The notes under the pieces: generated by a model
Told to the model about the DNA's origin: nothing
The model's database searches: none
What the model saw: the letters and a program-made list of their open reading frames with translations, nothing else
Program-made: the position numbers and the translations under genes
Shown: piece after piece, positions 2,303 through 27,258 of the stretch
Layout of the letters: every line of letters starts with the position of its first letter
Position numbering within the stretch: position 1 is the first letter of the stretch
Source: a virus
Virus record (IMG/VR): IMGVR_UViG_3300032304_002195
Span: 1-29,439 of that record
DNA length: 29,439 nucleotides
Direction: 5' to 3' (one strand)

Positions 2303-2314
2303 TTTTAATATATA
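2303..2314 (+). promoter_or_regulatory. Candidate phage promoter box TTTTAATATATA
   Basis: This AT-rich box sits 20 bp before the ATG of the gene remnant at 2335. The same TTTTAATATATA core occurs just upstream of several other starts on both strands (13306, 17014, 18114, 19616, 24275). The surrounding stretch is also nearly self-complementary, so a structural role cannot be excluded. Confidence 0.35.
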
Positions 2315-2334
2315 TATATTAAAAAAAATAATAT

Positions 2335-2517
2335 ATGAATCATTTAAAGACGTTTGAGGAAATTAATTTTAAGAATCTAGCCGCTGGAACACTATTGGCT
2401 TTGAGGTAAAAACAGAGAAGTTGAGTTCCGTACTAGAGACATAACATTCAATATTGGGGATTCTGTTAAATCAAGAACGGAGAATGTGGTGTTGAAGTTA
2501 AACGAGTTAATAAATAA
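2335..2517 (+). pseudogene. Frameshifted remnant of a tagged small protein gene
   Basis: ATG 2335 opens a 24-codon frame that carries the shared N-terminal tag (MNHLKTFEEINFKNLA, then GTLLALR) and stops at TAA 2407-2409. A protein-like sequence continues in the +1 frame from about 2405 (GKNREVEFRTRDITFN, then KSRTENVVLKLNEL). There is a stop at 2515-2517 in the first frame and a terminator hairpin right behind. This looks like one small gene broken by an indel near the ggtaaaaac run at 2405-2413. It could be a sequencing error, or decay following insertion of the neighbouring homing endonuclease. No function is recognised. Confidence 0.5.
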
Positions 2518-2521
2518 AAAT

Positions 2522-2546
2522 AAAAGTGGACTAAAAGTCCCCTTTT
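2522..2546. terminator. Bidirectional terminator
   Basis: Hairpin aaaaGtGGACT-aaa-AGTCCcCtttt with one internal mismatch, followed by T runs on both strands. It separates the gene remnant (+) from the 3' end of the homing endonuclease gene (-), whose stop is at 2552. Confidence 0.7.
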
Positions 2547-2551
2547 TGATT

Positions 2552-4213
2552 TTAAAACTCCCATCTTTTATTTCCACCATTCATTATTTTAACAGCACCA
2601 ATCTCGTTCATCATTTGCTCCTCTGTTAAAGAAGGATCGAAACCCAATTTTATCAACTTCTTTTTTGTCCAATTTGATCTATGTTCCCCTTTACCATCTA
2701 TTAAATACCAGTAACCTGGCTTAGATTCGTGGATGAAGTTAAATCCTAATTTTTCATGCAATTCCCCACTAGATATCAAGTTGTCGGAATAGGTTACTAT
2801 TTTACTTGGTGAATAATTATCTATGAAATATTTCAATAACTTCGAAGCCCCACCAACCACATTTACAAATAATTTATTACAAAATCTAGTAAGTTCATAA
2901 GAATCCTTATCTCCATTCATAATAACCCTACCTTTTGAGAAAGACATAAAAGAAACTATTTCTTCATTAAAATATAATCCCAATCTAATGGAAGACTTAC
3001 AATCACCTTGTAAGTGATTATCATCTAAGAACTTCTTAGAATCTTTCCAAGATACTAATTTTATAGAACATTTTCTAGCTCCAATTTTACTTGGCGTCCC
3101 ACCAATCTTATTTAGTATAAAGGATTTACATATATTCATTTTCATGATCCATTCATCTTCCCATATAGTTATGATTGATATTCCCATTTCTTTAAAATAC
3201 TTAGTCTTATTCAAATGGTAGTTTTCTTCTTTGTATTTATCTGAATGCCACCAAAGTCCATTATATTCAAAACCTATATTTAATTCGGGTAGATAAATAT
3301 CTATTTCATACTTACCAATCCTTTTATTCTGTAAAACTTCCAAATCAGTATTCCCCGATACAAAGTGATATATTTCAATCTGTGACAAGGATGAGTTATC
3401 AGAAATGGGGAAGCATTTCGTACATGGGTTATGTCCATTATTTACCCTCCAATAAAATTGATATGGAAGTATATTAAATTCTTGTTTACATTCACCACAA
3501 TCGAATATAAGTGTAGTGGTTAAGTCCTTTTCAAACCTATTGAATGTGTAGTTACCATTTACTCTCTCTTCAATCCTTTTCCTATATTCAATATAGAAAT
3601 GTTCTGTTGTCTTCTTATGTATTTCTTTATTCATCCAAGGGTGTTCCACCCCATACTTTTCAATAGAGGATTTCTTAAATGAATCTTTAAAGTCAGAATT
3701 CTTGAATGAGTCAATTCTTTTATCTAAAAGTATTTTGGACTTGGAAGGATTATCCACACTCCAATTTTCCAATAGTGTTTCTTTAGACTTTTCCTTTATT
3801 TTATTATTTGACATTGGTGAATTTCCACCATATCTTTCAATATTGGTTTTTATTATCTTTTCTTTTATTGAATCTAATTGAGATGGGTGTTCAACTCCCC
3901 ATTTATTTATAGAGTTTATCTTTTTATTTTGTATTATGCTAGGATCTTTTGATATACACTTATTTGAACAATATTTAAGATATCCTATATTAGAGTTTTT
4001 AAACCTTACATTATTTACGCATTCAGGATTGACACACTTAGGGATTTCAGTTAATCCATTTATAGATAAATAAACCTTTTCCTTGAATGAACATTGTAAA
4101 TGGGTATATCCCTCGATAATAAAAGTATAGTGATCAGGATAGTTTTTTAATAAATAAGATTCTTTGAACATTCTACCAGATGGATCTGGTTGTTTAAAAA
4201 TAGAAAAATCCAT
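2552..4213 (-). CDS. Free-standing homing endonuclease, Vsr/PD-(D/E)XK type, 553 aa
   Basis: Site-specific DNA endonuclease that would spread its own gene. Two Cys clusters look like zinc-binding modules: C60, C65, C82, C86 and C239, C242, C264, C267. Between them, repeats such as KYGVEHPWMNKE and WGVEHPSQLDS recur at residues 105-200; these are DNA-binding repeats typical of phage homing enzymes. The nuclease core at residues about 278-356 contains E280, D305, E316, the run FEYNGLWWHSD and TIWEDEW. This matches the Vsr-like EDxHD fold of enzymes such as I-Bth0305I. The C-terminal 180 residues (SIRLGLYFN, LTRFCNK, GGASKLLKYF, YSDNLISSGELHEKLGF) are the extension usually found on these phage proteins. 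It stands alone between terminators, and its start codon lies in a hairpin. Enzyme class is confident; the target is unknown. Confidence 0.88.
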   Translation of the reverse strand: MDFSIFKQPDPSGRMFKESYLLKNYPDHYTFIIEGYTHLQCSFKEKVYLSINGLTEIPKCVNPECVNNVRFKNSNIGYLKYCSNKCISKDPSIIQNKKINSINKWGVEHPSQLDSIKEKIIKTNIERYGGNSPMSNNKIKEKSKETLLENWSVDNPSKSKILLDKRIDSFKNSDFKDSFKKSSIEKYGVEHPWMNKEIHKKTTEHFYIEYRKRIEERVNGNYTFNRFEKDLTTTLIFDCGECKQEFNILPYQFYWRVNNGHNPCTKCFPISDNSSLSQIEIYHFVSGNTDLEVLQNKRIGKYEIDIYLPELNIGFEYNGLWWHSDKYKEENYHLNKTKYFKEMGISIITIWEDEWIMKMNICKSFILNKIGGTPSKIGARKCSIKLVSWKDSKKFLDDNHLQGDCKSSIRLGLYFNEEIVSFMSFSKGRVIMNGDKDSYELTRFCNKLFVNVVGGASKLLKYFIDNYSPSKIVTYSDNLISSGELHEKLGFNFIHESKPGYWYLIDGKGEHRSNWTKKKLIKLGFDPSLTEEQMMNEIGAVKIMNGGNKRWEF

Positions 4214-4233
4214 ATATTTATATATGGATTTTT
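4204..4233 (-). promoter_or_regulatory. Hairpin burying the endonuclease start codon, with TATAAATA in it
   Basis: There is a perfect 13-bp inverted repeat (4204-4216 and 4221-4233) with a 4-nt loop. The ATG at 4213-4211 lies inside the stem. The minus strand across the loop reads TATAAATA (4222-4215), identical to the T4 late promoter -10 consensus. T4 homing endonuclease genes such as I-TevI use a start-region hairpin together with a late promoter to delay translation. Here the box is so close to ATG that a transcript from it would be leaderless or start just inside the gene, so the parallel is only partial. Confidence 0.45.
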
Positions 4234-4252
4234 TGGTATTGTTTTAAATAAA

Positions 4253-4282
4253 AAAAACCTCTCAATTTCTTGAGAGGTTTTT
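4253..4282 (-). terminator. Terminator of the tail sheath gene
   Basis: A 13-bp stem around ACCTCTCAA / TTGAGAGGT with loop tttc, followed on the minus strand by a T run. It begins 5 bp after the sheath stop codon and separates it from the endonuclease gene. Confidence 0.85.
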
Positions 4283-13306: not shown

Positions 13307-13427
13307 AAATTTCTTTACTTTTATCAATTTCAATAAAAAAATATTTTCACACACCACTATGAAAAAATAGAAAAAAAGAAAGGTTTTAAGGAAATTGAAT
13401 TTCGATCATCAATATATATGTATAGTT

Positions 13428-13715
13428 ATGAGATTTAAAGAATTATTAATTGACAATAAGAAAATAGTAGGTGAAAAGCAGATAACAGATGTCTTAGAGA
13501 GAAAAGGATTCCATTGGTTAATAGATTCCGAAGTAGAAGAGGCAAAAATAGAGATCGAGCACAACACTTTAATTTGGCACTCAGGAAGTTACTATTCAGG
13601 TAACTGGCACTATGGTATCTTCAAAGGTGGTGAATTTTATGGAGTATTTGAAAACGGAATATTTGAAAAAGGTAATTTCAAGGGTGAGTTTAAAAGTGGT
13701 ATGATGTTTGAATAA
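13428..13715 (+). CDS. MORN-like repeat protein, 95 aa
   Basis: Small protein whose second half consists of Gly/Trp/Tyr/Phe repeats of MORN-like type: WHSGSYYSGNWHYGIFKGG, then EFYGVFENGIFEKGNFKGEF (four to five units of about 11 residues). Such repeats form a beta-hairpin strip that binds lipids or proteins; the partner is not evident. I place the start at ATG 13428 (MRFKELLIDNKKIVGEKQ) rather than an in-frame TTG at 13395, because MRFKELL resembles the other N-termini and the upstream codons look non-coding. The next gene starts 19 bp after its stop. Confidence 0.7.
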   Translation: MRFKELLIDNKKIVGEKQITDVLERKGFHWLIDSEVEEAKIEIEHNTLIWHSGSYYSGNWHYGIFKGGEFYGVFENGIFEKGNFKGEFKSGMMFE

Positions 13716-13734
13716 AAAAATAAGTGTAAATCTT

Positions 13735-14181
13735 ATGAGTAAGAAGCAGTTCCGAAACATAGTAAAGGTCTTGACAGAACCTAACTTTGTTAAAATCGAA
13801 AAAGGTGAAAAAACCTCATTCTACCAAATTGGCGACTTTATTACTAACGATGTAGCAGAAGCAGTTGCGATTATGATGATAACACCTGAAATAGATCCAC
13901 ACTTATGGAATACTAAATTTAATTGTAATTGCGAAGATCTAGAACCTAGGAAATGCTTATATTGGTTAACCGGAGGCGATAAAGAATGGGTACTTTTGGA
14001 AAACTATAAAAAGACATGGATTGAATGTGACCTGGATTTCCAACAGAAATATGGCCTTTTAATACTAGATATTGTTAAGAATGCTAAGACCCTTGGTGAC
14101 ATAAAAGAAAGGTTCACAAAAGAGTTAAATCTACTTGATTTGTATGAGTTTGCCCTTTCAATAGACATCGTGAGATTCTAA
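13735..14181 (+). CDS. Hypothetical protein, 149 aa
   Basis: I do not recognise this family. The start ATG 13735 (MSKKQFRNIVKVL) is preferred over an upstream TTG at 13708 that would overlap the previous gene. Residues about 65-90 contain a small Cys cluster (CNCEDLEPRKC) followed by YWLTGGDKEWVLLEN; the C-terminal half is helical (LLILDIVKNAKTLGDIKERF). The three Cys are too few for a sure zinc site. It lies between the MORN-like gene and the C-terminal TerL half and is transcribed with them. Confidence 0.6.
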   Translation: MSKKQFRNIVKVLTEPNFVKIEKGEKTSFYQIGDFITNDVAEAVAIMMITPEIDPHLWNTKFNCNCEDLEPRKCLYWLTGGDKEWVLLENYKKTWIECDLDFQQKYGLLILDIVKNAKTLGDIKERFTKELNLLDLYEFALSIDIVRF

Positions 14182-14223
14182 GGAAGAAATATTTGATGAT
14201 ATATATAATAAAAATCAATAGTT

Positions 14224-14658
14224 TTGAAGAAAATATTATCAAATATAATCTACTTTATAATCTATATTATTGAATCAATCGAATTATTCCATTATGACTT
14301 GGATGAAGATGATATAACTAAAAAAATATTATTTTCATCCAAGTTTAATAAAAAATTACTCTCAGATTCAGGATTTGTTAACACATCCAATATTCATATA
14401 ACACAACCTTATAGAATATGGGAACTGGAATTGGAAAATGGATTATACTTAGAATGTGCAGATAATCACATATTATTTAGACATGGATACTCAGAAGTAA
14501 GATGTAAAGACTTAAATATAGGTGACTACATACTTACAATTAATGGCGAGCAAAAAATAAGCAAACTTAAAAAAACCAATAAGAAGGTTTGTATGTTTGA
14601 TGTTACCGTAGATCATCCATCACATAGGTATTATACAAACGACATTTTAAGTCACAAT
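14224..14658 (+). other. C-intein segment of split TerL intein (145 aa)
   Basis: The segment ends with His144-Asn145 and is followed by Thr+1 (codon 14659-14661). It carries blocks B, F and G. The block B region lies in this half, so the split is upstream of block B, as in the AceL-TerL class of atypically split inteins. The first 35 residues are hydrophobic then acidic (IIYFIIYIIESIEL, HYDLDEDD) and may dock onto the basic tail of the N-intein. Confidence 0.92.
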
Positions 14659-16434
14659 ACTATTAATGCAGCTATAGTAATGCTTCATTATGTAACATTC
14701 AATAATGATAAAAACATTATGATTGTGGCTAACATAGCCGCCACAACCGTTGAAATCGTGGATAAGATAAAATCAATTTATACCTTATTACCATTCTTTC
14801 TAAAGATAGGAATTAAAAACTGGAACCAAAAAACAATCATATTTGAAAATGGTTGTAGAATAAAGTCTTCAGCTAGATCAAAAACACCAGCGATTGGTTT
14901 TACTATTGACTTTCTTTATATAGATGAGTTTGCTCATATACCAGCAAACATTATTGAGAATTATTATACGGCGGTATATCCAGTTGTTTCCGCTCTTGAA
15001 AACTCTAAAATAATTATCACATCTACCCCAAATGGTATGAATAAATTCTACCAAATATTAAATGATGCAGAAAGACCAGATGGAGATCCCCTTAAAAACT
15101 CTTATAGATCACTTAGAGTTTATTGGTATCAAGTTCCAGGCAGATTTGTTACTTATTGTAGACTAAATCCGTTTAGGTTAAAAGAATTTGGTGTAGATAA
15201 AGAATTTGTTTATAATCAACTAAATGAAAGATTCTCATCTAGAACAAAAACAATGATGAGGTTTGATTCTGAATTAACCAAAGATGTTATACACATATTC
15301 AATAACGAAGATGTTTCTGATGATGAAGTAAAATCTTTTATATTGAATATAGATGGACAAGAAGTTTCTATCAGATCTATTTCTGAAGTAACCACTTGGA
15401 AAGAAGAAAGTATTAAAAATATTGGAGGTGAAGATGCTTTTAACCAAGAATTCGGACTAAGGTTTATAAATGACTCTAAATCACTTTTAAATGAAACAAT
15501 AGTAGAAAAAATGTTACAAAACAAAAAGAATTTTATTTGGGAAAGGATAGATGAACTAGATAGAAGGTTAAAATTTTCTTATGAGGATCTAAAATGGATA
15601 GATGATGATTCTATCTATCAACCAATAGTAAGAAAACAAATAAGAGGGGTTATCTCTGTTGATATTGCTGAAGGACTAGGTCAGGATTATTCAGTTATAA
15701 ACATATTTAAAATATCCTTAAAATCAGCAGATGTAATAGAAAGAACTAGACATAAATATACACACCTATCGGATTTCTTTTGTTTGGAACAAATAGGCAT
15801 GTTTAGATCTAATTGGGTTTCAGTAAAACAATTGACTGAGATATTCTATGTTTTACAATTCGAATATTTTAACGATGAAAACTTTAAAGTTGTTTTAGAA
15901 CTTAACAACTATGGTAATGAATTTTTAGCTCACCTTCCCCACTTATTCGAAGGAAATAACAATTATGGTTCTGGTGTTTTCTTAAAATACAAACACAGAG
16001 CGGATGCAACAGAAGAGAAAATTGGATTGAAAGTTGGTGAAAACAAAAATTTACTGGTTAAGTCCTACCAAGAATGTATGGATATAGGTAACTTCTTAAT
16101 CTACAATGATCAAAATATAAAAGAGATCACCACATTTGTTAAAAGAGAGACAACATCAGGCAATATTAAATACTGCGCTGATATCGGTAATGATGATACT
16201 GTTATGACCTTGGTTAATGCTTCTTCTGTATTTCAAAAACACTCATTTAGAGAAATGGTTGAAGATTATGCTAGAACATTGGATCCAAGTATAATTAGCT
16301 CTTTCAATACATGGTTAAATCAAAATGAAGATCTAATACAAGCAACAGACTATTCATCTTTAATAAATGCCAATAGGGAAAGAAGGTTTAATCAACAATA
16401 TAAAGAAATGAGTTTAGGGAGAAGATTTTTCTAA
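14224..16434 (+). CDS. Large terminase (TerL), C-terminal half, preceded by a C-intein
   Basis: Encodes most of the DNA-packaging motor, but only as a trans-splicing partner. Residues 1-145 are a C-intein: KLLSDSGFVNTSNIHITQPY, then block B-like ECADNHILF, DLNIGDYI, block F CMFDVTVDHPSHRYYTNDI and block G LSHN145. The next residue, T146, completes the Walker A motif missing here. The mature part has Walker B FLYIDE (230-235), the coupling motif TSTPNG (about 265), and the RNase H-like nuclease with D480 (VDIAEG), E559 (LELNNYG) and D657/D658 (IGNDD). The partner is the gene at 19611-20111, on the opposite strand. No ATG is available in frame before residue 124. TTG 14224 is the likeliest start; an ATG frame (14196-14273) runs into it in another frame. 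The gene ends just before the terminator at 16437. Confidence 0.95.
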   Translation: MKKILSNIIYFIIYIIESIELFHYDLDEDDITKKILFSSKFNKKLLSDSGFVNTSNIHITQPYRIWELELENGLYLECADNHILFRHGYSEVRCKDLNIGDYILTINGEQKISKLKKTNKKVCMFDVTVDHPSHRYYTNDILSHNTINAAIVMLHYVTFNNDKNIMIVANIAATTVEIVDKIKSIYTLLPFFLKIGIKNWNQKTIIFENGCRIKSSARSKTPAIGFTIDFLYIDEFAHIPANIIENYYTAVYPVVSALENSKIIITSTPNGMNKFYQILNDAERPDGDPLKNSYRSLRVYWYQVPGRFVTYCRLNPFRLKEFGVDKEFVYNQLNERFSSRTKTMMRFDSELTKDVIHIFNNEDVSDDEVKSFILNIDGQEVSIRSISEVTTWKEESIKNIGGEDAFNQEFGLRFINDSKSLLNETIVEKMLQNKKNFIWERIDELDRRLKFSYEDLKWIDDDSIYQPIVRKQIRGVISVDIAEGLGQDYSVINIFKISLKSADVIERTRHKYTHLSDFFCLEQIGMFRSNWVSVKQLTEIFYVLQFEYFNDENFKVVLELNNYGNEFLAHLPHLFEGNNNYGSGVFLKYKHRADATEEKIGLKVGENKNLLVKSYQECMDIGNFLIYNDQNIKEITTFVKRETTSGNIKYCADIGNDDTVMTLVNASSVFQKHSFREMVEDYARTLDPSIISSFNTWLNQNEDLIQATDYSSLINANRERRFNQQYKEMSLGRRFF

Positions 16435-16436
16435 AA

Positions 16437-16467
16437 AAATAAATCCTCACCATGTGAGGATTTATTT
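16437..16467. terminator. Bidirectional terminator between convergent units
   Basis: 14-bp stem AAATAAATCCTCAC-cat-GTGAGGATTTATTT, directly after the TerL C-half stop and 9 bp before the stop of the minus-strand gene at 16476. It separates the two transcription units that carry the TerL halves. Confidence 0.88.
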
Positions 16468-16475
16468 CAGTGGAG

Positions 16476-16994
16476 TTATTCGTCTTCAAGTCTAATTCTA
16501 TTAGGCTTACGACCATATTTACGATACCTAGTATATTTTGCATCTTTATTAAGAAAGTATCCTGCGGGTTCATTGACCCCATCTTCGAATTCATTACAAG
16601 CTTCTATAAATTTCTTATAATCTTTTTCACTCATTAGCTGTTTAGCTCTTTTATAGAATTCATTTCTAATCTCGAAAGCTTCTTCCCTTTCTATATTTCT
16701 TCCTTCTTCTTCGCCGAAATATAAGTTATTTTTGTGTTTTTCTAGTTCCATCAACAAATCTTTTATTTTTGGATCATCTTGTATCTTAGCAAAGAGCGGA
16801 CCTATTGTTGATTTCGCTATTTCGAAATCAAGTTTATCAAACAATTCACTCACTTTTTCATATCCACGAAAAAGACCATAACACACAAATGGTGTTGCGA
16901 GTTGCATTAATGCAACTGTTATTAGGTCAGAGTCAGTCGATTCATATACGGCCGTGTATTGTTGAAAAGTTCTTATATTTTTCATTTTTTTCAT
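16476..16994 (-). CDS. Tagged protein with one hydrophobic segment, 172 aa
   Basis: Function unknown. The N-terminus MKKMKNIRTFQQYTAVYESTD carries the shared tag, and V16-Y17-E18|S19 is a near match to a prohead protease site. Residues about 24-44 (LITVALMQLATPFVCYGLF) are hydrophobic enough for a membrane segment. The rest is charged and helical, with a basic tail (YTRYRKYGRKPNRIR). M4 (ATG 16985) is an alternative start. It is the last gene of the minus-strand terminase operon. A box TTTTTAATATATAA at 17001-17014 lies 6 bp before its ATG. Confidence 0.66.
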   Translation of the reverse strand: MKKMKNIRTFQQYTAVYESTDSDLITVALMQLATPFVCYGLFRGYEKVSELFDKLDFEIAKSTIGPLFAKIQDDPKIKDLLMELEKHKNNLYFGEEEGRNIEREEAFEIRNEFYKRAKQLMSEKDYKKFIEACNEFEDGVNEPAGYFLNKDAKYTRYRKYGRKPNRIRLEDE

Positions 16995-17000
16995 TTTTCT

Positions 17001-17014
17001 TTATATATTAAAAA
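17001..17014 (-). promoter_or_regulatory. Candidate phage promoter box TTTTTAATATATAA
   Basis: It ends 6 bp before ATG 16994 and overlaps the stop codon of the previous gene. If it is a -10 element, the transcript would be leaderless or nearly so. Confidence 0.35.
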
Positions 17015-17240
17015 AAAATACTTTTTTTGCTTTATTTATAAATATTTTGAACTTATTAAGATCGTGATTTTCTTGAGCTCCTTTTTTAGCATCATCTAAC
17101 GTAGTATAATATCCAATAGGCTTTTTATTAAGGAAAAGACACCAAGAATTGTCAAATTCTTCATATTGAATATGGAAATCCCCTTTATAGGATTTACTTG
17201 CTTTGTAACCGTAACTTTTTACTTCCCATTGTATCTTCAT
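17001..17240 (-). CDS. Small hypothetical phage protein, 79 aa
   Basis: Single small domain of unknown role. The pattern (WEVKSYGYKASKSYKGDFHI, then WCLFLNKKPIGYYTTLDDAKKGAQ) is beta strands followed by a helix with DDAKKGAQ. It resembles small proteins common in phages that read W.L.F......IG.f.tLddAK..A. It lies 3 bp after the 17244 gene and 6 bp before the 16476 gene, in the same operon. Confidence 0.65.
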   Translation of the reverse strand: MKIQWEVKSYGYKASKSYKGDFHIQYEEFDNSWCLFLNKKPIGYYTTLDDAKKGAQENHDLNKFKIFINKAKKVFFFNI

Positions 17241-17243
17241 AAC

Positions 17244-18098
17244 TTACATTTTAGTGGAAAATGACTCAAAAGTTTTTATTCTTGTTATATTCAATATAAC
17301 CTTAACTTTTGTAAATTTATTCATTTCATTTTCATTTACTTTAGTTATAATAAGTTCTGGTCTGAATTCAACTACATCTTCCTTTATAATATCCCTTAGA
17401 CCATTTTCTGTTTTTGTTAAAAGAACTTCTAGTGTGTAATTAATCTGTCTTGTTATTTCTAATGTATCCAGATCATCATCGAAGAAAAGTATTTTCCTAT
17501 ATCTTGTGATTTCTGTGTCAATAAACTTATCACCTTCTGTTCTATACCCAATTAAATGTTGTATTAAAAGTTTAATCTTTTTTAGCTTCGTGTCATTATA
17601 ATTTTGATTATAGAAATTGTCAGATATATAGTAATAACTTTTAATAGAAATACCATTTTTGTGGAGTATTTCATTAAGTTTTTCTATAAGAGTTTCATAA
17701 TTCTTTTTGGTTTGTCGTGAACATATTATATAAATATCATCAGTCCTATTCTTTAATAAGTTAATCATACCCATATTCAAATCAAAATCCAAATGGTCTA
17801 TGACACTTTTATTAAAGAACTCTTGTAAAGAAATAGCTAAATCTGATACATCAATCTTATTAGATTTACATTTAACTTTTATTTCATTGTAAAGTTTAGT
17901 AGGCAACCAATAAGTATTTCCATTGAATTGAATCTTATTATCCTGACTTCTATAGATGCCACTTCTGATTAAGTTAAAATCAGTTTTTGATATTTTTTTA
18001 ATAGGAATTGTTGGATTGTTTTTACTAACAACCCAGGCTTCATTTTTAACTATCAATAATGTATCTAAGTCTACAAAATAAGATTTTTTCTTAACCAT
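17244..18098 (-). CDS. HAD-superfamily-like protein with tag-like C-terminus, 284 aa
   Basis: Probable HAD-fold phosphatase or a binding derivative. It begins with a DxDT motif (YFVDLDTLLIV, D10 and D12). The run DDIYIICSRQ near residue 117 fits HAD motif II (Ser), and ILFFDDDLDTL near 207 fits the acidic motif IV. The substrate is unknown. The last residues, RIKTFESFSTKM, resemble the N-terminal tag of many neighbours (MKHIK.F..F) but sit at the C-terminus. It lies in the minus-strand operon after the 18118 gene, with a box TTAATATATAG 5 bp before its ATG. Confidence 0.62.
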   Translation of the reverse strand: MVKKKSYFVDLDTLLIVKNEAWVVSKNNPTIPIKKISKTDFNLIRSGIYRSQDNKIQFNGNTYWLPTKLYNEIKVKCKSNKIDVSDLAISLQEFFNKSVIDHLDFDLNMGMINLLKNRTDDIYIICSRQTKKNYETLIEKLNEILHKNGISIKSYYYISDNFYNQNYNDTKLKKIKLLIQHLIGYRTEGDKFIDTEITRYRKILFFDDDLDTLEITRQINYTLEVLLTKTENGLRDIIKEDVVEFRPELIITKVNENEMNKFTKVKVILNITRIKTFESFSTKM

Positions 18099-18103
18099 AA
18101 TGA

Positions 18104-18114
18104 CTATATATTAA
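18104..18114 (-). promoter_or_regulatory. Candidate phage promoter box TTAATATATAG
   Basis: It lies 5 bp upstream of ATG 18098. It matches the box before ATG 19599 in sequence and spacing. Confidence 0.35.
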
Positions 18115-18117
18115 TTT

Positions 18118-19599
18118 TTAAACCTTTGGTATAATTCCCCTAAATTTTGGGTTTATTTTAACCCAATTAGATAGGTCATATTTGAAACTATCACATCCAT
18201 AAAAAATATCTTCCATTTTAGTAACCTTACTAATATTCCATTTGGATATATCACAATTGAAGTTTTTACACCTTTTGAACATGTATTCCATATTCTTAAC
18301 ATTACTAACATTCCATTTTGATATGTCACAATTAAAGTATCTCCAACCATAAACCATATAACTCATATCAGTTACATTACTAACATCTAAGAAATTTAGA
18401 TCAGCATCATTTCCCATCTTATCTACTAAATGTTCAACTATTTTTTTTATGTTATTGTCATTTAATTTAGTATTTTTTACAATATTAATATATTTATCAA
18501 TAGGTATTGCTTTACCCCCACCAGAATTAAAGTAATCATGTTTTTGTTTATTATTGAACTTATTATAAATACTATTATCAAAATTAACATACTCATCTAA
18601 ACTATGAACTAGAAAGTCCAATATCGATTCGTTCTTCAAATCTACATTTGGTATAGTTCCGGTGTCTTCAAAAGTTCCCATTAATGCAGCGATTTGGTCT
18701 TCTAAATTATTACTAGGATTTACTTTTTCTGGATTATTGTAGTAATAATCATCTATTTCTTTATAAGAAAATATACTTTTATCTATTAACTTTAACCTAG
18801 AATTAAAGGATAATACTTTTTCATATGTTAAATCATTTTTAGTTTGGTTAATGATGTTAGTAAAGTCAAATTCACCTTTATTATTTAACATAACAACATT
18901 AATTTCGTTATTTTTATCAGGTGAGTTATAATCATAAATATACCATATATTATTTTTTCCTCCATAAACATAACTTCCATACATAACGGGTCCAGTTATA
19001 CAGAAACTGGTTTTTTTACCTAATAGTTGACTATCTCTAAGAGAGTTAACTCTAAAAACCTTTATATTACCATTATCATATTCTGCAACTGGTTTTAACC
19101 CTTCTAGATTTGGATTTATTTTGGTTCCAGGATTTCTTTTATTATACAACTCGGTATATAATTCATGAAGTTTTAAAATGAATTTATCTTCATCACTTAT
19201 TAATGATTTTAAAATACTTTTTAATTTATCTTTGTTGTCACTTGAATTAATTAAATCCTTGTATTTATCAATATCATCTTTAATAAGTTCCTTATTATGT
19301 TTAAATTTAAACAACTCTGGTATATCCATTTCAGATTTAACACCGGTATTTTTAAGATTATCATAGACGGAATCCAAATATTTTAAATAGTCTTCATATT
19401 TACTTTTATATTTAAGTGCATTATTATCAGTACTTTTGGATACAATTTCTTTTAATTTATCCGAATAGTTCTTGTTAAACTCCTTGAATTGTTCATCAGA
19501 CAACTTATAGTTTCGTTGAACACCTTTTAAAAAGGATTCTACATTAAATTCGGCCTCTTTTATAAGCCTATATCCATTATAACTCTTTATATATCTCAT
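18118..19599 (-). CDS. Tagged protein with BspA-type leucine-rich repeats, 493 aa
   Basis: Possible head-packaged effector. The N-terminus MRYIKSYNGYRLIKEAEF has the tag, with I13-K14-E15|A16 fitting prohead protease. Residues about 20-150 are helical. Residues about 182-205 (FRVNSLRDSQLLGKKTSFCI) and the following GGKNNIWYIYDY belong to an 'lGk-T-[WF]C' type module that I have the impression recurs in large phages; its activity is unknown to me. Residues about 401-485 are DUF285/BspA-like repeats (LDVSNVTDMSYMV, FNCDISKWNVSNVKNMEYMF, and again with ISKVTKMED), a repeat class usually found in surface proteins that bind other proteins. The gene starts 11 bp after the TerL N-half stop. LRR identity is secure; the role is not. 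Confidence 0.72.
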   Translation of the reverse strand: MRYIKSYNGYRLIKEAEFNVESFLKGVQRNYKLSDEQFKEFNKNYSDKLKEIVSKSTDNNALKYKSKYEDYLKYLDSVYDNLKNTGVKSEMDIPELFKFKHNKELIKDDIDKYKDLINSSDNKDKLKSILKSLISDEDKFILKLHELYTELYNKRNPGTKINPNLEGLKPVAEYDNGNIKVFRVNSLRDSQLLGKKTSFCITGPVMYGSYVYGGKNNIWYIYDYNSPDKNNEINVVMLNNKGEFDFTNIINQTKNDLTYEKVLSFNSRLKLIDKSIFSYKEIDDYYYNNPEKVNPSNNLEDQIAALMGTFEDTGTIPNVDLKNESILDFLVHSLDEYVNFDNSIYNKFNNKQKHDYFNSGGGKAIPIDKYINIVKNTKLNDNNIKKIVEHLVDKMGNDADLNFLDVSNVTDMSYMVYGWRYFNCDISKWNVSNVKNMEYMFKRCKNFNCDISKWNISKVTKMEDIFYGCDSFKYDLSNWVKINPKFRGIIPKV

Positions 19600-19603
19600 G
19601 AAT

Positions 19604-19616
19604 CTATATATTAAAA
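19604..19616 (-). promoter_or_regulatory. Candidate phage promoter box TTTTAATATATAG
   Basis: It lies 4 bp before ATG 19599 and overlaps the end of the TerL N-half gene (stop 19611-19613). It may give the downstream genes their own transcript. Confidence 0.38.
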
Positions 19617-20111
19617 CTTAAAAAGTATATTATATAATGATATTTTTAACTTTTCTAAAAATGTTAGGTTTCTTTCCATAGACTTTATTGTGTAATATAA
19701 TATCCCAATTCTAACCTTTTCACCAGACTCTAGATTGACCAAAGTATTAAATGTAACACATTTACCAATCTGTCTTGAACCCATTAGTATACTGAATCTA
19801 TTTTTGGTATATAAATCCAGTATATTATATTGATAATCTCTCAATTTTATGTGTGATATGTTTCCTTCTTCAGTTTTTACTTTGCAGTATTTTTCAGCGA
19901 AATAATAAATGTCTTTAGAACATTTAACCCACTCTTGTATTTGTTCATCGGTCCACGCAAAGGTTATACCCGATCTTCTAACACCCACTTGGTTTTCAAA
20001 CCAAGGGTTTTCATAACGCTTAATAACAACACCATCATTTATTTTATTTGTTATTTCTTCTACATTCTTACTTGTAAAAACAAATCTTTTTTCTTCCTGT
20101 GCTTTAACCAT
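19611..20111 (-). CDS. Large terminase (TerL), N-terminal half fused to an N-intein, 166 aa
   Basis: Residues 1-117 are the start of TerL: ITFAWTDEQIQEWVKCSKDI, FAEKYCKVKTEEGN, HIKLRDYQYNILDLY, then Walker A GSRQIGK (111-117). These are the usual T4-type gp17 features up to the ATP-binding loop. At that point Cys118 begins an intein block A (CVTFNTLVNLESGEKVRIG), followed by a basic, helical tail (TFLEKLKISLYNILFKF) and a stop. The Walker A Thr is absent here and is supplied by the C-half at 14659. The two halves splice into about 708 residues. The gene overlaps the stop of the upstream probable small terminase by 1 bp (TAATG). This half alone cannot bind ATP normally. Confidence 0.95.
   Translation of the reverse strand: MVKAQEEKRFVFTSKNVEEITNKINDGVVIKRYENPWFENQVGVRRSGITFAWTDEQIQEWVKCSKDIYYFAEKYCKVKTEEGNISHIKLRDYQYNILDLYTKNRFSILMGSRQIGKCVTFNTLVNLESGEKVRIGILYYTIKSMERNLTFLEKLKISLYNILFKF
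19614..19760 (-). other. N-intein segment of split TerL intein (49 aa)
   Basis: It starts at the Cys118 codon directly after the Walker A Lys and carries only block A. It is longer than the 25-residue AceL-TerL N-intein because of an added segment, SMERNLTFLEKLKISLYNIL, which looks like the linker that follows block A in contiguous TerL inteins. The tail is basic, opposite to the acidic start of the C-intein. Confidence 0.9.
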
Positions 20112-20695
20112 TATTTTACATTTTTTATTAGATCATTTAAGTCCCTAACATTCATTATGGTTCCCTCTTGTTCCTTTGGATTTGATTCTTCCATTTTATC
20201 GGAAATATCTTTTAAACCTAAGTCTTTTCTAAGGTCTTTATACATTTTTTCCATGTCCGTTCTTTGATTTTGTGAGAACTTAATATTATCTCTCATTTGA
20301 GATATTGTTTGGTTCACCACTTCGTGCATACGAGCTGAGTTGTCTCCATTATCAATCTGTCTTAATTGAGTTATACAGTTTTTAACAGTCATATTTTGAA
20401 GAAACTTCATTTGAGCAAAAACATCAGCATCTTCTTTTACTCTTCTAACTATATAAGAGTGTGTTCTGATATTATTATCATCACCTAAAAATAAATCAGC
20501 CAAATGATTTAAATAATCATCAGCTTCTTCTTTTGTCTTATCTAGGTCAGAATCATAGTCATAGATTTCTATCTCACCAAGATCTGGCATATCCTCTGGA
20601 CTAGCCATATATTTTGTTATGTCCAAACTATTTTCATTGGTAACCCTTTCAAATTCAGCATATAGGTCATTTAATTTTTCCTTTTTGCTACTCAT
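20111..20695 (-). CDS. Probable small terminase subunit (gp16-like), 194 aa
   Basis: Likely DNA-recognition partner of TerL; called mainly from position and architecture. It directly precedes the TerL N-half with a 1-bp stop/start overlap (TAATG), as in T4-like gene 16-17 pairs. Size (194 aa against 164 in T4) and make-up fit: an acidic region at residues 30-65, a long central coiled coil (VKEDADVFAQMKFLQNMTVK, then VVNQTISQMRDNIKFSQNQR) and a mixed C-terminus (RDLNDLIKNVK). I see no clear helix-turn-helix. It is the first gene of the minus-strand operon; an AT-rich element (CTATATATAATATAAAA) lies about 18 bp upstream. Confidence 0.65.
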   Translation of the reverse strand: MSSKKEKLNDLYAEFERVTNENSLDITKYMASPEDMPDLGEIEIYDYDSDLDKTKEEADDYLNHLADLFLGDDNNIRTHSYIVRRVKEDADVFAQMKFLQNMTVKNCITQLRQIDNGDNSARMHEVVNQTISQMRDNIKFSQNQRTDMEKMYKDLRKDLGLKDISDKMEESNPKEQEGTIMNVRDLNDLIKNVK

Positions 20696-20774
20696 AATAT
20701 ATAATTATTATTTTATATTATATATAGGTTTAACCACTTTCCTTTTGTTTTTTGTTTATTTTATGTATTTTACT

Positions 20775-23589: not shown

Positions 23590-24234
23590 ATGAAGCATAT
23601 CAAACTATTCGATTCTTATAGAAACAAAAGAAGAAGAGATGAGATAATTAAGGAATCTGTAATGCAAGTAAATGATATTTACAAAGTTAAAACTATGGTA
23701 GATATTCCTCAATCATTGATCAACTCTTATGTTAAAAAAGTAAAATCAAATACTGGTAAAGATTTAAGACAATTCTTTGGGGATATGGATTTAGCAGAAG
23801 AAGTTGTTAAATGGGTCACATTAAACAACCTAGATGCTGATAAAATACCAGCTAACGCTTTAGTCGGTGGATCACAAATGGGACAAGGACAAGGACAAGG
23901 ACAGATGCAGGGCCAAGGCCAGATGCAAACTCAACCACAGGGTCAAGCCCAAACACAATCTCAACCACAAGGTCAACCACAAGGCCAAGGTCAAGGTCAA
24001 GGAGAATTTGAGGATATAGTCCCACAAGGCCAAGGACAGGGACAGGCTCAAGGTCAAGGACAGGGTCAAGGTCAAGGTCAAGGACAGGCTCAAGGACAAG
24101 GACAGGCTCAAGGCCAAGGTCAGGCTCAAGGCCAAAGACAAGGTCAGGCTCAAGGACAGGGTCAAGTTCAAGTGCAAACACAAGGACAAGGACAAGGACA
24201 AGAAGAAGAGGAAGACGAAGAACTTCCATTATAA
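23590..24234 (+). CDS. Tagged protein with long Gln-Gly repeat, 214 aa
   Basis: Unknown function; head packaging or scaffold suspected. Residues 1-22 hold the tag MKHIKLFDSYRNKRRRDEII, with I20-K21-E22|S23 fitting a prohead protease site. Residues about 23-95 form a small helical domain (PQSLINSYVKKVKSNTG, LAEEVVKWVTLNN). Residues about 96-203 are almost pure QG dipeptides with some QA, QP and QT, broken once by EFEDIVP. The protein ends in EEEEDEELPL. The repeat is very hydrophilic and probably disordered. The gene has the promoter-like box shared with the sheath gene and its own terminator, which fits late expression. Confidence 0.75.
   Translation: MKHIKLFDSYRNKRRRDEIIKESVMQVNDIYKVKTMVDIPQSLINSYVKKVKSNTGKDLRQFFGDMDLAEEVVKWVTLNNLDADKIPANALVGGSQMGQGQGQGQMQGQGQMQTQPQGQAQTQSQPQGQPQGQGQGQGEFEDIVPQGQGQGQAQGQGQGQGQGQGQAQGQGQAQGQGQAQGQRQGQAQGQGQVQVQTQGQGQGQEEEEDEELPL
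23876..24201 (+). repeat. Degenerate CAAGGA/CAAGGT hexanucleotide repeat (Gln-Gly coding)
   Basis: About 50 imperfect copies of caagga, caaggt, cagggt and caggct. The variation is mostly at third positions, so the amino acid pattern is under selection even though the DNA varies. Confidence 0.9.
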
Positions 24235-24290: not shown

Positions 24291-24905
24291 ATGATATATT
24301 TAGAGTCATATCAAAGTTTCCCAAATGGAGGAACCCTAATAGTTGTAGATGTTCAGAAAAGCTTTAAAAAGTTTTTTTCTGAAAATTACGTAGAGGTTTT
24401 GAAAAAATACTGCAATAACTTTTCACAGGTCTATCAAATATTTGATAATCACAATGAGGGTAAGGATGTTGATTTGGACTATTTATATGATGATCATCCC
24501 GATACACCTGTTACAAATGATTTATATGAATTTCCCAACCAAAAGGGATTGATAGAGAAAAGATATAACTATGATGTTGATATAGATTTTTACAAAAAAA
24601 TTGTAACTAAGGAAGTATACGATAAAGTAAAGTCTATGGAGAATAACAAATCTCTAACAAGAGGTATGATGTTTCCCACAAATCAAGGAACCGTTTTGGT
24701 TTATATAGGAAATAATCACCAATGGTTTCATGTACCAAAAAAGTTATATGAGTTGTTTAAGAAGTTAAAAGGTCAAACTGTACATATGGCAGGTGGATCA
24801 AGAGATGAATGTTTCTTAGATGTAGAAACTACAGCAAAATCCATGGGTGTGGATATAAAGATAGACTATAAGTACACTTATTCAGCTAATGGAAGTTTAC
24901 TATAA
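24291..24905 (+). CDS. Isochorismatase-like hydrolase family protein, 204 aa
   Basis: Probable cysteine-hydrolase fold. The core starts at TLIVVDVQKSF, with D20 and Q22 in the place of the family's DxQ motif, followed by YQIFDNHN. The later TVHMAGGSRDECFLDVETTA places C174 at the catalytic cysteine position, followed by the usual amphipathic helix and strand (SMGVDIKIDYKYTYS). The usual catalytic lysine between them is not obvious, and a 70-residue insertion separates the motifs, so activity is uncertain. The first ten residues (MIYLESYQSF) vaguely resemble the shared tag. It overlaps the convergent gene at 24900 by 6 bp. Confidence 0.72.
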   Translation: MIYLESYQSFPNGGTLIVVDVQKSFKKFFSENYVEVLKKYCNNFSQVYQIFDNHNEGKDVDLDYLYDDHPDTPVTNDLYEFPNQKGLIEKRYNYDVDIDFYKKIVTKEVYDKVKSMENNKSLTRGMMFPTNQGTVLVYIGNNHQWFHVPKKLYELFKKLKGQTVHMAGGSRDECFLDVETTAKSMGVDIKIDYKYTYSANGSLL

Positions 24906-25325
24906 GTCAAACATTTTTATAAATTCATAATCTACGTCAAAATTTGATATAGCATAATCAAAATCTATTTTTGATTTATTACTGGCTAATGTTTCAACTA
25001 GATATTTTGAGAAATCAGCATACTTTACTAGGCGTGAAATCCCATCAACTTGGATGTCATAAAACATTGGTTGTTCATTTAAAATTATCCTAAACATCAA
25101 AAGATAGTAGTCATCATCAATCGCCTTTATGATTAAACTATTTCCATATCGGCTAAAATTTTGATTATCTGATACCACTATGTTGTTTTTTGATTTCCCA
25201 TATATATAATCAATTTCTTTTTTATTTAAAGGCCTACTATACTTCAACGTATGGGTTATTCCTTCAAGATTTAATTTTTTCCAAACCTTGTCCTGAAAAT
25301 TTTCAAATATCTTTATATGATTCAT
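24900..25325 (-). CDS. Tagged small protein, 141 aa
   Basis: No recognised domain. The N-terminus MNHIKIFENFQDKVWKK is a clear copy of the shared tag, but no exact [IL]-x-E site follows (nearest is NLE at 19-21). The rest appears as an alpha/beta domain (NNIVVSDNQNFSRYGNSLII, DDYYLLMFRIIL) with an acidic C-terminus. It is downstream of the 25334 gene by 8 bp. The leader is TTAAATATATATATG, with the TATA-like run touching the start codon. Confidence 0.65.
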   Translation of the reverse strand: MNHIKIFENFQDKVWKKLNLEGITHTLKYSRPLNKKEIDYIYGKSKNNIVVSDNQNFSRYGNSLIIKAIDDDYYLLMFRIILNEQPMFYDIQVDGISRLVKYADFSKYLVETLASNKSKIDFDYAISNFDVDYEFIKMFDL

Positions 25326-25333
25326 ATATATAT

Positions 25334-25669
25334 TTAAGATGTTTGGTTTACATATATTCTAACAGCCTTTTCTATCTCAATAGTCCCGTTATAGCACCAA
25401 TCTTCTTCATCAAAAAGGCAAGTATATCCAAGTTTATCCGTATCTATAGTTCTGAGGAAATATAACTTTTTGGGATAGATATTTTCGAATCTAGTTCTCC
25501 TATTCTTATTGATAAAATCTTCTTTAGCTATTTCAATAAAGGCAGGATCATTATCAAAAACAACCCTCCATTGATTCTGATCAAACTCATCTAGTTTACT
25601 TAAAAGATCTATTCTTTTATTTCCCCTAAACTTATTTATCTGATCTCTAAATTTCTTGATATGTTTCAT
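25334..25669 (-). CDS. Tagged small protein, 111 aa
   Basis: Unknown function. MKHIKKFRDQINKFRGNKR is the shared tag with a basic extension, and L26-D27-E28|F29 could be a prohead protease site. The remaining 80 residues form a small domain with several aromatic residues (QWRVVFDNDPAFIEIAKEDF, CLFDEEDWCYNG). A box TTTTTTATATATAGT lies 20 bp before the ATG. It is probably co-transcribed with the 24900 gene. Confidence 0.65.
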   Translation of the reverse strand: MKHIKKFRDQINKFRGNKRIDLLSKLDEFDQNQWRVVFDNDPAFIEIAKEDFINKNRRTRFENIYPKKLYFLRTIDTDKLGYTCLFDEEDWCYNGTIEIEKAVRIYVNQTS

Positions 25670-25688
25670 ATTATTTTTTATTTTTTCA

Positions 25689-25704
25689 ACTATATATAAA
25701 AAAT
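25689..25704 (-). promoter_or_regulatory. Candidate promoter box ATTTTTTATATATAGT
   Basis: It lies 20 bp before ATG 25669, the same spacing as the related boxes upstream of the sheath gene and the gene at 23590. Confidence 0.42.
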
Positions 25705-25787
25705 CAATATACGGATCATCTTTTTCAATCCTATATAGTTGACTTAAAGGATATTAAACTTTTTATATATTTTAAATACTAAATTAT

Positions 25788-26753
25788 ATGGATCTTATAT
25801 TCGTAACCGCTTATTGTCCAACCGAAGAACAAGTAGAAAGATTAAATCAATGTATAGACCACTTGTTGGTGGTTGGATTTGATATCTGTATTATATCCCA
25901 TACACCAGTACCATTACACATACAAGAAAAGGTAAAGTTTTATATATATGACTCGGAAAACGATTTATCTGATGATAATGATTTAAAACATACCGAATAT
26001 TACTTTGGAAAGGATTATGTGATAAAATCAAAACTATTTAAAAAAGTTCCCTTTTATGGATTTGCTATCTATAGAATGTTTTCAATTGTAAGTGGTCTAG
26101 CTAAAAGTTTAGGATACCAAAAGATCTATCATGTGGAATATGATTACTTAATAAAGGACCCAAATATCTTTATAAACCATAAAAAAATATTGGACACATA
26201 TGATTCTGTTTTATATGGCAGTGAACCAGGAGAAAATATAAAAGGCAATTTCAACCTAATATTAGGTGGATTAAAATCATTTAGAGTCGACAATCTCCCA
26301 AAACTATTCTACAATTTCAATAGGGCGGAAATGGAGAAAAGAATAAAAGAAGAAAGCCTGATTCCTTTGGAAAACTTTACTACTAAGATTTTTATGGAAT
26401 CAGGGAAACCCTTTTTCATAGAACATAAATGGTTAAAGGATAGGATTGAAATTAAGAAATTTATAAATCAAGAATTGAACTGGACTATTTATTATAATAT
26501 AGACAATGATTTTTTAGGATTTTTCTATTTAAATTATTTTGAGGATTGTGAAATAAAAATTATAATAAATGATTCAGAAGAATTTATTATAGATTTAAAA
26601 AAATCTGATACCAAATGTTATGATATAAAAAAATATAACATGGTAAATAGTCTTAAAATATTAAGAAATTCTCATATAATATTCGACCAAAACATAAACG
26701 ATGATCTTATCAAAAAACTTAAAACAGATTCAATTAGGATCGAATCTAAATAG
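25788..26753 (+). CDS. Glycosyltransferase-like protein (GT-A type), 321 aa
   Basis: Probable sugar transferase. It begins LIFVTAYCPTEEQVERLNQC, a Rossmann-like strand and helix, then GFDICIISHTPVP. The run YRMFSIVSGLAKSLGYQKIY, followed by HVEYDYLIKDP (near residue 125), is the usual place of the metal and nucleotide-sugar binding acidic motif. The motif FFIEHKWL follows near 205. The last 90 residues, rich in Lys, Asp and Ile, look like a separate beta domain. The acceptor could be phage DNA, a virion protein or host surface glycan; position before sugar-type genes supports glycan work. Fold call is by eye. Confidence 0.65.
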   Translation: MDLIFVTAYCPTEEQVERLNQCIDHLLVVGFDICIISHTPVPLHIQEKVKFYIYDSENDLSDDNDLKHTEYYFGKDYVIKSKLFKKVPFYGFAIYRMFSIVSGLAKSLGYQKIYHVEYDYLIKDPNIFINHKKILDTYDSVLYGSEPGENIKGNFNLILGGLKSFRVDNLPKLFYNFNRAEMEKRIKEESLIPLENFTTKIFMESGKPFFIEHKWLKDRIEIKKFINQELNWTIYYNIDNDFLGFFYLNYFEDCEIKIIINDSEEFIIDLKKSDTKCYDIKKYNMVNSLKILRNSHIIFDQNINDDLIKKLKTDSIRIESK

Positions 26754-26762
26754 TAAATTTAT

Positions 26763-26793
26763 TTTGTATATTCAGTTTATTGTGGTACCTTTG
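26763..26793 (+). promoter_or_regulatory. Bacteroidota-type sigma promoter TTTG-N19-TACCTTTG
   Basis: TTTG at 26763-26766, 19 bp, then TACCTTTG at 26786-26793. This is an exact match to the primary sigma factor consensus of Bacteroidota (TTTG-N19-21-TAnnTTTG). Transcription would start near 26799, giving a leader of about 37 nt before ATG 26836. A host-type promoter suggests early expression. Confidence 0.8.
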
Positions 26794-26835
26794 TTTTATC
26801 AAAAGGGAGATAACAAGCCCTAGTTAATCAGAATT

Positions 26836-27258
26836 ATGAAAACAACCGCAACTAACGTAAGCACAACCGCAACTAATGTAAGCCCTTATTTCTGGATTAA
26901 AGCTATATTTAATCAGAATGAATTTGATGATTTTTGTGATTTTGTCCATGGATGGACTTTAGAATATGGTGATGGTGTTTGTCATTGGTCTCTATACTCC
27001 CCTTCCAAAAATTCTCTTAGTAAAGTTTATTGGGATAATTATGTAAAAAATGGTAAAAAGATTGCTGTTTTAGAAGGAAATGGTAAGATTTATGCAGCAA
27101 TTGTTATGTCAGATGGTACCATAGACGAAAGTATAGGAGTATTTGACAATAGAGATGTTAAAATCAGTGATAAAATTTCTCTTGATAAGATACAAAGTAA
27201 AATATATTCAGGAATTAACGACAAGGGAGTAACGTCTCTATATCATAGAAATGGATAA
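26836..27258 (+). CDS. Hypothetical protein, probable early gene, 140 aa
   Basis: I do not recognise a family. The N-terminus contains a perfect two-copy repeat TTATNVS-TTATNVS, encoded by a 21-bp direct DNA repeat. The body begins PYFWIKAIFNQNEFDDFCDF and includes HWSLYSPSKNSLSK, GKKIAVLEGNGKIYAAIVM and a charged C-terminus ending LYHRNG. There is no membrane segment. It is the only gene here with a clear host-type promoter and is closed by its own terminator, so it is a single-gene unit that may be expressed immediately on infection. Small lone early genes often act on host functions, but no target can be named. Confidence 0.68.
   Translation: MKTTATNVSTTATNVSPYFWIKAIFNQNEFDDFCDFVHGWTLEYGDGVCHWSLYSPSKNSLSKVYWDNYVKNGKKIAVLEGNGKIYAAIVMSDGTIDESIGVFDNRDVKISDKISLDKIQSKIYSGINDKGVTSLYHRNG
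26842..26883 (+). repeat. 21-bp direct repeat, two copies, inside coding sequence
   Basis: Copies at 26842-26862 and 26863-26883 differ at one base (aacg against aatg). They encode TTATNVS twice at the protein N-terminus. Confidence 0.9.

What the first reader, a model, noticed from the sequence alone, without database searches (positions are those of the whole stretch)
14224..20111. Large terminase split at its Walker A motif by a split intein, with halves on opposite strands
Seen in the sequence: the minus-strand gene 19611-20111 ends its terminase part at GSRQIGK and continues with an intein start, Cys-VTFNTLVNLESGE. The plus-strand gene 14224-16434 begins with an intein end (CMFDVTVDHPSHRYYTNDI, LSHN) followed by Thr and the rest of TerL, including Walker B and the nuclease residues. 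Joined, they restore GSRQIGK-T exactly and give about 708 residues. Known: fractured phage genes with split inteins, and the atypically split AceL-TerL family. Unusual here: the halves are convergent, on opposite strands, in different operons, with four unrelated genes between their facing 3' ends. No intact TerL is visible in the window. Inference: packaging needs both units to be expressed, so trans-splicing could act as an AND gate on DNA packaging.
Basis: partly seen in the sequence, partly recalled or inferred. Interest (0 to 1): 0.96.

Follow-up and report, generated by a model that had tools for sequence, protein, structure and literature searches.

The report
Phage packaging motor split across strands
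In this phage the motor that packs DNA into the virus head is encoded by two separate genes on opposite DNA strands, each carrying half of a self-splicing protein element that should weld the halves together; relatives show the same gene whole, cut in place, or cut with its halves moved far apart.

Summary
Confirmed: the large terminase (TerL) is encoded by two convergent genes on opposite strands, cut inside Walker A (SRQIGK|T) by a split intein. The joined exteins (708 residues) align with T4 gp17 across the junction. The intein has Cys1, terminal His-Asn and Thr+1; models fall on intein folds, VidaL first. The window keeps 77 of 77 highly conserved positions in the first 500 residues of the C-extein. 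The kind is known (fractured genes; AceL/GOS-TerL; DnaE). New is the dispersal. Within loci showing both halves they share a strand (75 of 75 in one census), often flanking an endonuclease-like gene. Two near-identical phages show the insert present and absent. Whole-contig searches found opposite strands twice more (22 kb apart, distant tree branches), 12 kb in the 735-kb phage, 67 kb in reversed order in another. Best reading: a mobile split intein fractured TerL in place; rearrangement then separated the halves because trans-splicing tolerates it. An AND gate is not supported: one promoter-like motif precedes both units. Against: the window's arrangement rests on one contig, and no splicing, expression or read data exist.

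The parts
19761..20111 (-). TerL N-extein (117 aa, ends GSRQIGK, first part of Walker A)
19611..19760 (-). intein N-half (49 aa from Cys118, with C-terminal helical tail) and stop codon
14224..14658 (+). intein C-half (145 aa, hydrophobic N-terminal helix, His82 in ADNH, ends ILSHN); TTG start
14659..16434 (+). TerL C-extein (591 aa from Thr+1: rest of ATPase, nuclease) and stop codon
16437..16467 (.). perfect 14-bp hairpin between the convergent 3' ends; candidate bidirectional terminator
   Evidence: z -5.8; not listed by the simple terminator scan
14199..14207 (+). ATATATATA motif 17-25 nt before the TerL-C start
20719..20726 (-). TATATATA motif 24-31 nt before the start of the operon that holds TerL-N
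20111..20695 (-). conserved TerL neighbour directly upstream of TerL-N, overlapping it by one base (TAATG); small-terminase candidate, not confirmed
17244..18098 (-). conserved TerL-locus neighbour, inverted here relative to relatives
18118..19599 (-). DUF285 protein between the halves; no tblastn match in 140 relative loci
16476..16994 (-). orphan gene between the halves; no relative found
17001..17240 (-). small gene between the halves; no tblastn match in 140 relative loci, weak PHROG match (0.005)
13395..13715 (+). conserved TerL-locus neighbour A, orientation kept
13708..14181 (+). conserved TerL-locus neighbour B, orientation kept

Best explanation
A mobile split intein of the HINT fold, often carried together with an endonuclease-like gene, inserted between the Lys and Thr codons of TerL's Walker A and fractured the gene in place (shown by comparison of relatives). 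In the window no endonuclease gene lies between the halves, and rearrangements put the N-half, behind the small-terminase candidate, on the minus strand and the C-half on the plus strand (arrangement shown in one contig; the order of events is inferred). The two proteins are made from separate mRNAs, the intein halves associate, perhaps helped by the helices next to the split point, and protein trans-splicing (Cys1, terminal Asn, Thr+1) yields the 708-residue motor with a restored GSRQIGKT loop (inferred). Because joining happens at the protein level, position and strand of the halves are nearly free, so halves can drift apart; by the TerL tree they came to lie on opposite strands in three separate lineages.
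For: Anatomy. Fold: AlphaFold models of a contiguous homologue of the intein (L139, 203 aa; mean pLDDT 83) and of the window C-half (pLDDT 87) both match VidaL 6vgv first, and other inteins; profile matches to gp41-1, CatC and VidaL. Selection: the window agrees at 77 of 77 columns at least 98% conserved in 90 other rows, in the first 500 residues of the C-extein. Mobility: L023 (fractured) and L077 (intact) are 97% and 96% identical on the two sides of a 2.17-kb insert at the site; the fractured state is scattered over the tree (49 fractured and 41 intact rows, 13 changes). Ancestral state: halves on one strand in 75 of 75 loci where both are seen, of 83 examined; gene order A+B+C+D-N+K+E- complete in 70 of 140 loci. 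Dispersal elsewhere: G005 and G019 opposite strands, 22 kb; LR756501 12.4 kb; G018 12.3 kb; G015 67 kb. Separate places in the tree.
Against: No splicing, expression or read data. The window is one 29-kb record and no second contig with its junctions was found. Its TerL-C lies on a long branch (0.43-0.46), which could mean relaxed constraint; the trees are quick ones with SH-aLRT support only and several long branches. A whole TerL elsewhere in its unsequenced genome is not excluded. Its nearest TerLs by sequence are intact ones, so when the intein entered this lineage is unknown. The C-extein outside the first 500 residues was not tested for conservation.
Confidence: 0.85

Rival explanations
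1. Assembly artefact: an inverted or chimeric join in a metagenome contig placed the halves on opposite strands.
For: All other loci with both halves in view have one strand.
Against: A single false inversion cannot give the order seen: relative to relatives the TerL halves and the 17244 and 20111 genes are reordered and partly reoriented; the boundaries lie between whole genes with tight spacing, and genes without match in 140 loci fill the gaps. The only inverted repeat near two of the boundaries, 36 bp at 13.27 and 16.99 kb, is AT-rich and 72% matched. Two other contigs show opposite strands, and the 735-kb phage, described by its authors as complete and manually curated (passages), has separated halves.
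Confidence: 0.08
2. Regulatory AND gate: the phage profits from making packaging depend on two independently controlled transcripts.
For: Two units separated by a hairpin; opposite strands in three lineages by the tree, all three convergent.
Against: The same promoter-like motif precedes both units and the tail sheath; relatives seen with both halves in one locus keep them in one orientation, nearly all less than 5 kb apart, so two inputs are not needed; dispersed relatives differ in distance and order (12, 22, 67 kb), as drift would give.
Confidence: 0.06
3. The halves are decaying remnants and a whole TerL elsewhere in the genome does the packaging.
For: Long branch of the window TerL-C; second TerL-like genes exist in four of eight related large records.
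Against: 77 of 77 conserved columns kept and both intein ends intact. The two second copies that I read do not look catalytic: in the 735-kb phage 390 aa with SRQMGIT in place of Walker A and an end before the nuclease; in G002 245 aa without a recognisable Walker A (by eye). The other two (LR756500, LR756504) were not read.
Confidence: 0.05
4. The halves act as a two-subunit motor without splicing, the intein ends serving only as docking parts.
For: Helices at both split ends could hold the halves together.
Against: The cut lies inside the ATP-binding loop, which is one chain in known motors (recalled); Cys1, terminal Asn and Thr+1 are retained.
Confidence: 0.03

Closest known systems
Fractured phage genes with split inteins (Dassa et al. 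2009; seen only as a citation, not held; content recalled)
   Same: Essential gene cut into two reading frames, each with half an intein, with a free-standing endonuclease gene between them.
   Different: Here the halves are on opposite strands, convergent, with no endonuclease gene between them. The recalled cases are collinear.
Atypically split TerL inteins AceL-TerL, GOS-TerL and the consensus Cat (passages of PMC11766414)
   Same: TerL host, short N-half and long C-half, Cys1; the Cat C-half is matched by profile and fold.
   Different: N-half 49 aa rather than 25-37 aa; C-half 145 aa rather than 104 (Cat); helices at both split ends; gp41-1 scores as well as Cat by profile and VidaL better by fold.
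Cyanobacterial DnaE split intein (passage of PMC7765530)
   Same: [quoted passage not shown] opposite strands in Synechocystis is recalled.
   Different: Cellular polymerase, not a phage motor.
Fragmented genes of other large phages: Jug phages (passages of PMC12363816) and ICP1 terL (passages of PMC10448857)
   Same: TerL or other essential genes of phages in pieces, with introns, inteins or endonuclease genes near them; the Jug authors joined TerL fragments before making a tree.
   Different: ICP1 terL is joined by RNA splicing; the passages seen describe no halves on opposite strands.
T4 gp17 large terminase (L303)
   Same: Joined exteins align from residue 44 to 658, junction inside Walker A.
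   Different: T4 gene 17 is one reading frame.

Membership tests
T4-type large terminase (TerL) | Homology over ATPase and nuclease, Walker A restored on joining | tested here: met
T4-type large terminase (TerL) | Highly conserved positions of the family kept | tested here: met
   77 of 77 columns in the first 500 residues of the C-extein, against 90 other rows
Split intein | HINT fold | tested here: met
   models of a contiguous homologue and of the window C-half; the two window halves together were not modelled
Split intein | Catalytic ends: Cys1, terminal His-Asn, nucleophile at +1 | tested here: met
   C118, H144-N145, T146
Split intein | Trans-splicing activity | not testable with these tools
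   needs co-expression
Fractured gene (Dassa type, recalled) | Gene cut at one site, intact homologues exist | tested here: met
   intact TerLs and a precise empty site in a relative pair
Fractured gene (Dassa type, recalled) | Free-standing endonuclease gene between the halves | tested here: not met
   no such match among the genes between the halves; 43 of 75 relatives have a 310-350-aa same-strand gene there, four of which were scanned
Fractured gene (Dassa type, recalled) | Halves collinear | tested here: not met
   opposite strands
AceL/GOS-TerL atypical split intein | TerL host, short N-half, long C-half | tested here: met
   49 and 145 aa
AceL/GOS-TerL atypical split intein | Closer to this family than to other inteins | tested here: inconclusive
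   gp41-1 5.6e-9, CatC 9.9e-9, VidaL 1.2e-8
AceL/GOS-TerL atypical split intein | Same insertion site in TerL | not tested
   their extein sequences were not fetched
Small terminase (gene at 20111-20695) | Homology to T4 gp16 | tested here: inconclusive
   hhalign probability 0.5%; no PHROG match and no convincing PDB match

The most novel reading that the evidence does not exclude
Placing the TerL halves in separate, convergent units is not only tolerated but used: the active packaging motor can form only when both transcripts are translated in the same compartment late in infection, so splicing acts as a checkpoint on packaging in large phages.
Probability: 0.07. Interest if true: 0.85.

Novelty: new variant of a known kind. 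Interest (0 to 1): 0.63.

Why it matters
One essential gene family shows every stage from whole gene, to contiguous intein, to gene cut in place, to halves 12 to 67 kb apart or on opposite strands. That makes the question of what happens after a gene is fractured directly testable. It also bears on annotation: gene callers and TerL trees of large phages may count only one half of the motor.

Tried and rejected
Simple 3-kb inversion of TerL-C: rejected, because in relatives TerL-C has the same orientation towards genes A, B and E as in the window; it is TerL-N and the 17244 gene that are turned, and the order also differs. Inverted repeats at the boundaries: only AT-rich, 72% arms. Search for a second contig with the window's junction: none by a 30-base exact pattern, none by the orphan gene 16476-16994. 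The N-half as single-protein query found nothing; it worked as alignment A6. The 20111 gene as T4 gp16 homologue: inconclusive. Sigma-70-type promoter scan: fewer sites than in shuffles (41 against 52.5), uninformative. The fusedORF flags for L079 and L082 are an error of my script on the minus strand and were ignored. The tree with dispersed rows omits G018 and G020, whose frame my pattern missed, and counts LR756501 (L079) as fractured, not dispersed. The motif shuffles fall back to plain shuffling when the dinucleotide method fails. A group I intron in the second interruption of TerL-C: no Rfam match in L022.
Full report
Observation. The window is a virus record of 29,439 bases. TerL-N, 19611-20111 (-), gives 166 aa: 117 of TerL ending GSRQIGK and 49 from Cys118. 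TerL-C, 14224-16434 (+), gives 736 aa from a TTG start: 145 of intein ending ILSHN, then 591 of TerL beginning with Thr. PHROG finds terminase in both halves; Pfam finds it in TerL-C only. Joined, the exteins make 708 aa that align with T4 gp17 at 7e-52 through the junction, SRQIGKT against SRQLGKT. The two genes converge; four genes, all on the minus strand, lie between them.

The intein. The C-half matches gp41-1 (5.6e-9), the Cat consensus (9.9e-9) and VidaL (1.2e-8) by profile. The model of the window C-half (pLDDT 87, 43 rows) matches VidaL, Cat and many other inteins. Three contigs (L139, L140, L141) carry the intein unsplit at the same site (L139 read, 203 aa). The model of L139 (pLDDT 83, 62 rows) matches VidaL at TM 0.82 of the target. 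In that model two helices (residues 46-64 and 67-88) stand where the others are cut, and the split halves have a helix-like stretch at each cut end. That they help the halves meet is my inference. In L149 the two genes overlap by four bases, a step between unsplit and split.

Is the product under selection? In the first 500 residues of the C-extein 77 columns are at least 98% conserved in 90 other rows; the window agrees at 77 of 77. The branch of the window is long (0.46), so it changes fast elsewhere.

Relatives. A search with TerL-C gave 77 loci; one with the intein C-half gave 144 relatives, of which the best 80 are shown. Of 95 loci with the C-half (two phage records included) I dropped 12 that repeat a contig. 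Of the 83 left the N-half is in view in 75, and in 75 of 75 it is on the same strand; in 8 the C-half begins 37 to 2,271 bases from the contig end and no N-half is seen. A profile search over 216 loci, repeats of a contig included, gave 134 same strand, 0 opposite, and 21 with the C-half but no N-half in view, some of these with the intein in another gene. A search from the N-half side gave 164 relatives, the best 80 shown, 68 of them new; of the 68, 63 are same strand, 0 opposite, 5 have no C-half in view. Of the 75 pairs, 43 hold a same-strand gene of 310-350 aa in the gap, 12 another same-strand gene, 4 only an opposite-strand gene, 15 have a gap under 400 bases and no gene (4 of them contiguous or overlapping), and one is LR756501 at 12.4 kb; without that one the longest gap is 2.6 kb. 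Four of the 310-350-aa genes were scanned: restriction-endonuclease-like DUF559 is above its cut-off in two of four, a ROS/MUCR zinc-finger match in one. Of two scanned against PHROGs both match phrog_22677 (unknown function) and one also endonuclease families. A homing endonuclease is therefore likely, not shown.

Mobility. Fractured and intact TerLs are mixed in the tree (49 and 41 rows, 13 changes, at least 7 forced by starred branches). L023 (fractured) and L077 (intact) align at 97.4% up to the site and 96.2% from it on, with 2.17 kb extra in L023: a clean empty site.

Gene order. With A=13395, B=13708, C=17244, D=20111, N and K the TerL halves and E=21969, the order A+ B+ C+ D- N+ K+ E- is complete in 70 of 140 loci (intact and fractured); the others lack some of the genes in view (often short contigs or distant relatives) or are rearranged in a few cases, but N and K are collinear wherever both are seen. 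The window reads A+ B+ K+ .. C- .. N- D- .. E-. Several changes are needed, the boundaries lie between whole genes, and three genes in the gaps have no match in these loci. This looks like evolution, not a single false join. But no second contig with these junctions was found.

Dispersal elsewhere. Because these searches see at most 10 kb on each side, I searched whole contigs where a half stood alone. From the C side 10 records were searched: the N-half was found in G005 and, on another contig of a metagenome bin, in G014; 8 of 10 gave none. Of four relatives of G005 (G005 itself included), G015 has both halves, G016 only C (near its end), G017 an intact TerL. From the N side 5 records were searched: the C-half was found in G018, G019 and G020, not in G021 and G022. 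G005 (IMGVR_UViG_3300035698_019747, 152 kb): N at 1797-2300 (+), C at 24507-26753 (-). G019 (IMGVR_UViG_3300023257_000083, 30 kb): C at 1996-4278 (+), N at 26409-26924 (-). Both are opposite and convergent, about 22 kb apart. G018 (36.5 kb): same strand, 12.3 kb, with a gene like the endonuclease genes beside N, by eye. G020: same strand, about 2.2 kb. G015 (271 kb): same strand, N 67 kb downstream of C. LR756501, 735,411 bases: same strand, 12.4 kb, genes of both strands between. Its length fits the 735-kb genome of Al-Shayeb et al. 2020 (PMC7162821; passages seen), described there as complete and manually curated; the word intein does not occur in the main text held. It has a second TerL-like gene, 390 aa, with SRQMGIT for Walker A and an end before the nuclease. 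In the tree the three opposite-strand cases fall in three separate starred sets (quick method, SH-aLRT only, long branches), so I count three origins.

Expression. A perfect 14-bp hairpin (z -5.8) sits between the facing 3' ends. ATATATA occurs within 50 bases upstream of 16 of 31 genes (200 shuffles: mean 2.1, maximum 6): before TerL-C, before the gene that starts the TerL-N operon, before the tail sheath, and also before three of the four genes between the halves; not before TerL-N itself, A or B. The gene list is my own selection of reading frames. Both halves thus look like units of one regulon, which speaks against an AND gate with two inputs, without excluding it.

Literature. Searches on split inteins with terminase, fractured genes, opposite strands and split terminase and on huge phages with terminase and intein listed no title or abstract that describes TerL halves on opposite strands; I read passages of seven papers only. 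The library lacks most subscription papers, and Dassa et al. 2009 is not held. From passages: AceL-TerL has a 25-aa and GOS-TerL a 37-aa N-half (PMC11766414); [quoted passage not shown] TerL of Jug phages also comes in fragments (PMC12363816).

Verdict. Real and well supported as anatomy; a new variant of a known kind. The new part is the repeated dispersal of the halves of a packaging motor, including opposite strands.

Noticed in passing
L213:113-3291 and L214:1218-3185: In the 276-kb (G002) and 201-kb (G004) records a second gene, a gp41-like replicative helicase by recall, is also cut after a GK by a related split intein (C-half ends ILSHN, then Ser).
   Followed up: partly
L215:1855-3027 (-); L216:1357-2094 (-): Second, shortened TerL-like genes without a normal Walker A and without the nuclease part in the 735-kb phage and in G002; possible decoys or regulators.
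   Followed up: partly
L139, L140, L141; L149: TerL with the same intein unsplit (203 aa in L139), and in L149 two genes overlapping by four bases: stages before separation.
   Followed up: yes
window 2552-4213 (-): Free-standing homing-endonuclease-like gene (phrog_3339, 2.5e-114) beside the tail sheath; a similar gene, by eye, lies beside the sheath in G005.
   Followed up: partly
L022, L023, L035, L036, L038, L039, L056, L059, L064: TerL-C is interrupted again near residue 513-527 of its extein by about 1 kb; in L022 no Rfam family matches there, so its kind is open.
   Followed up: partly
window, upstream of 16 genes: ATATATA motif close before gene starts, a candidate promoter element of this phage group.
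   Followed up: partly
window 23590-24234 (+): Protein with a long Gln-Gly repeat; its first 92 residues are matched in many of the relatives near TerL.
   Followed up: no
window 2-1294 (-): Collagen-like Gly-X-Y repeat protein running off the record, perhaps a tail fibre.
   Followed up: no
L006, L048, L050, L072, L128: Other rearrangements of the TerL neighbourhood in relatives, with the halves or the whole TerL kept collinear.
   Followed up: no
L209 and L219 (G014): A Flavobacterium metagenome bin holds a C-half on one contig and an N-half on another, so a phage of this kind may sit in the bin.
   Followed up: no
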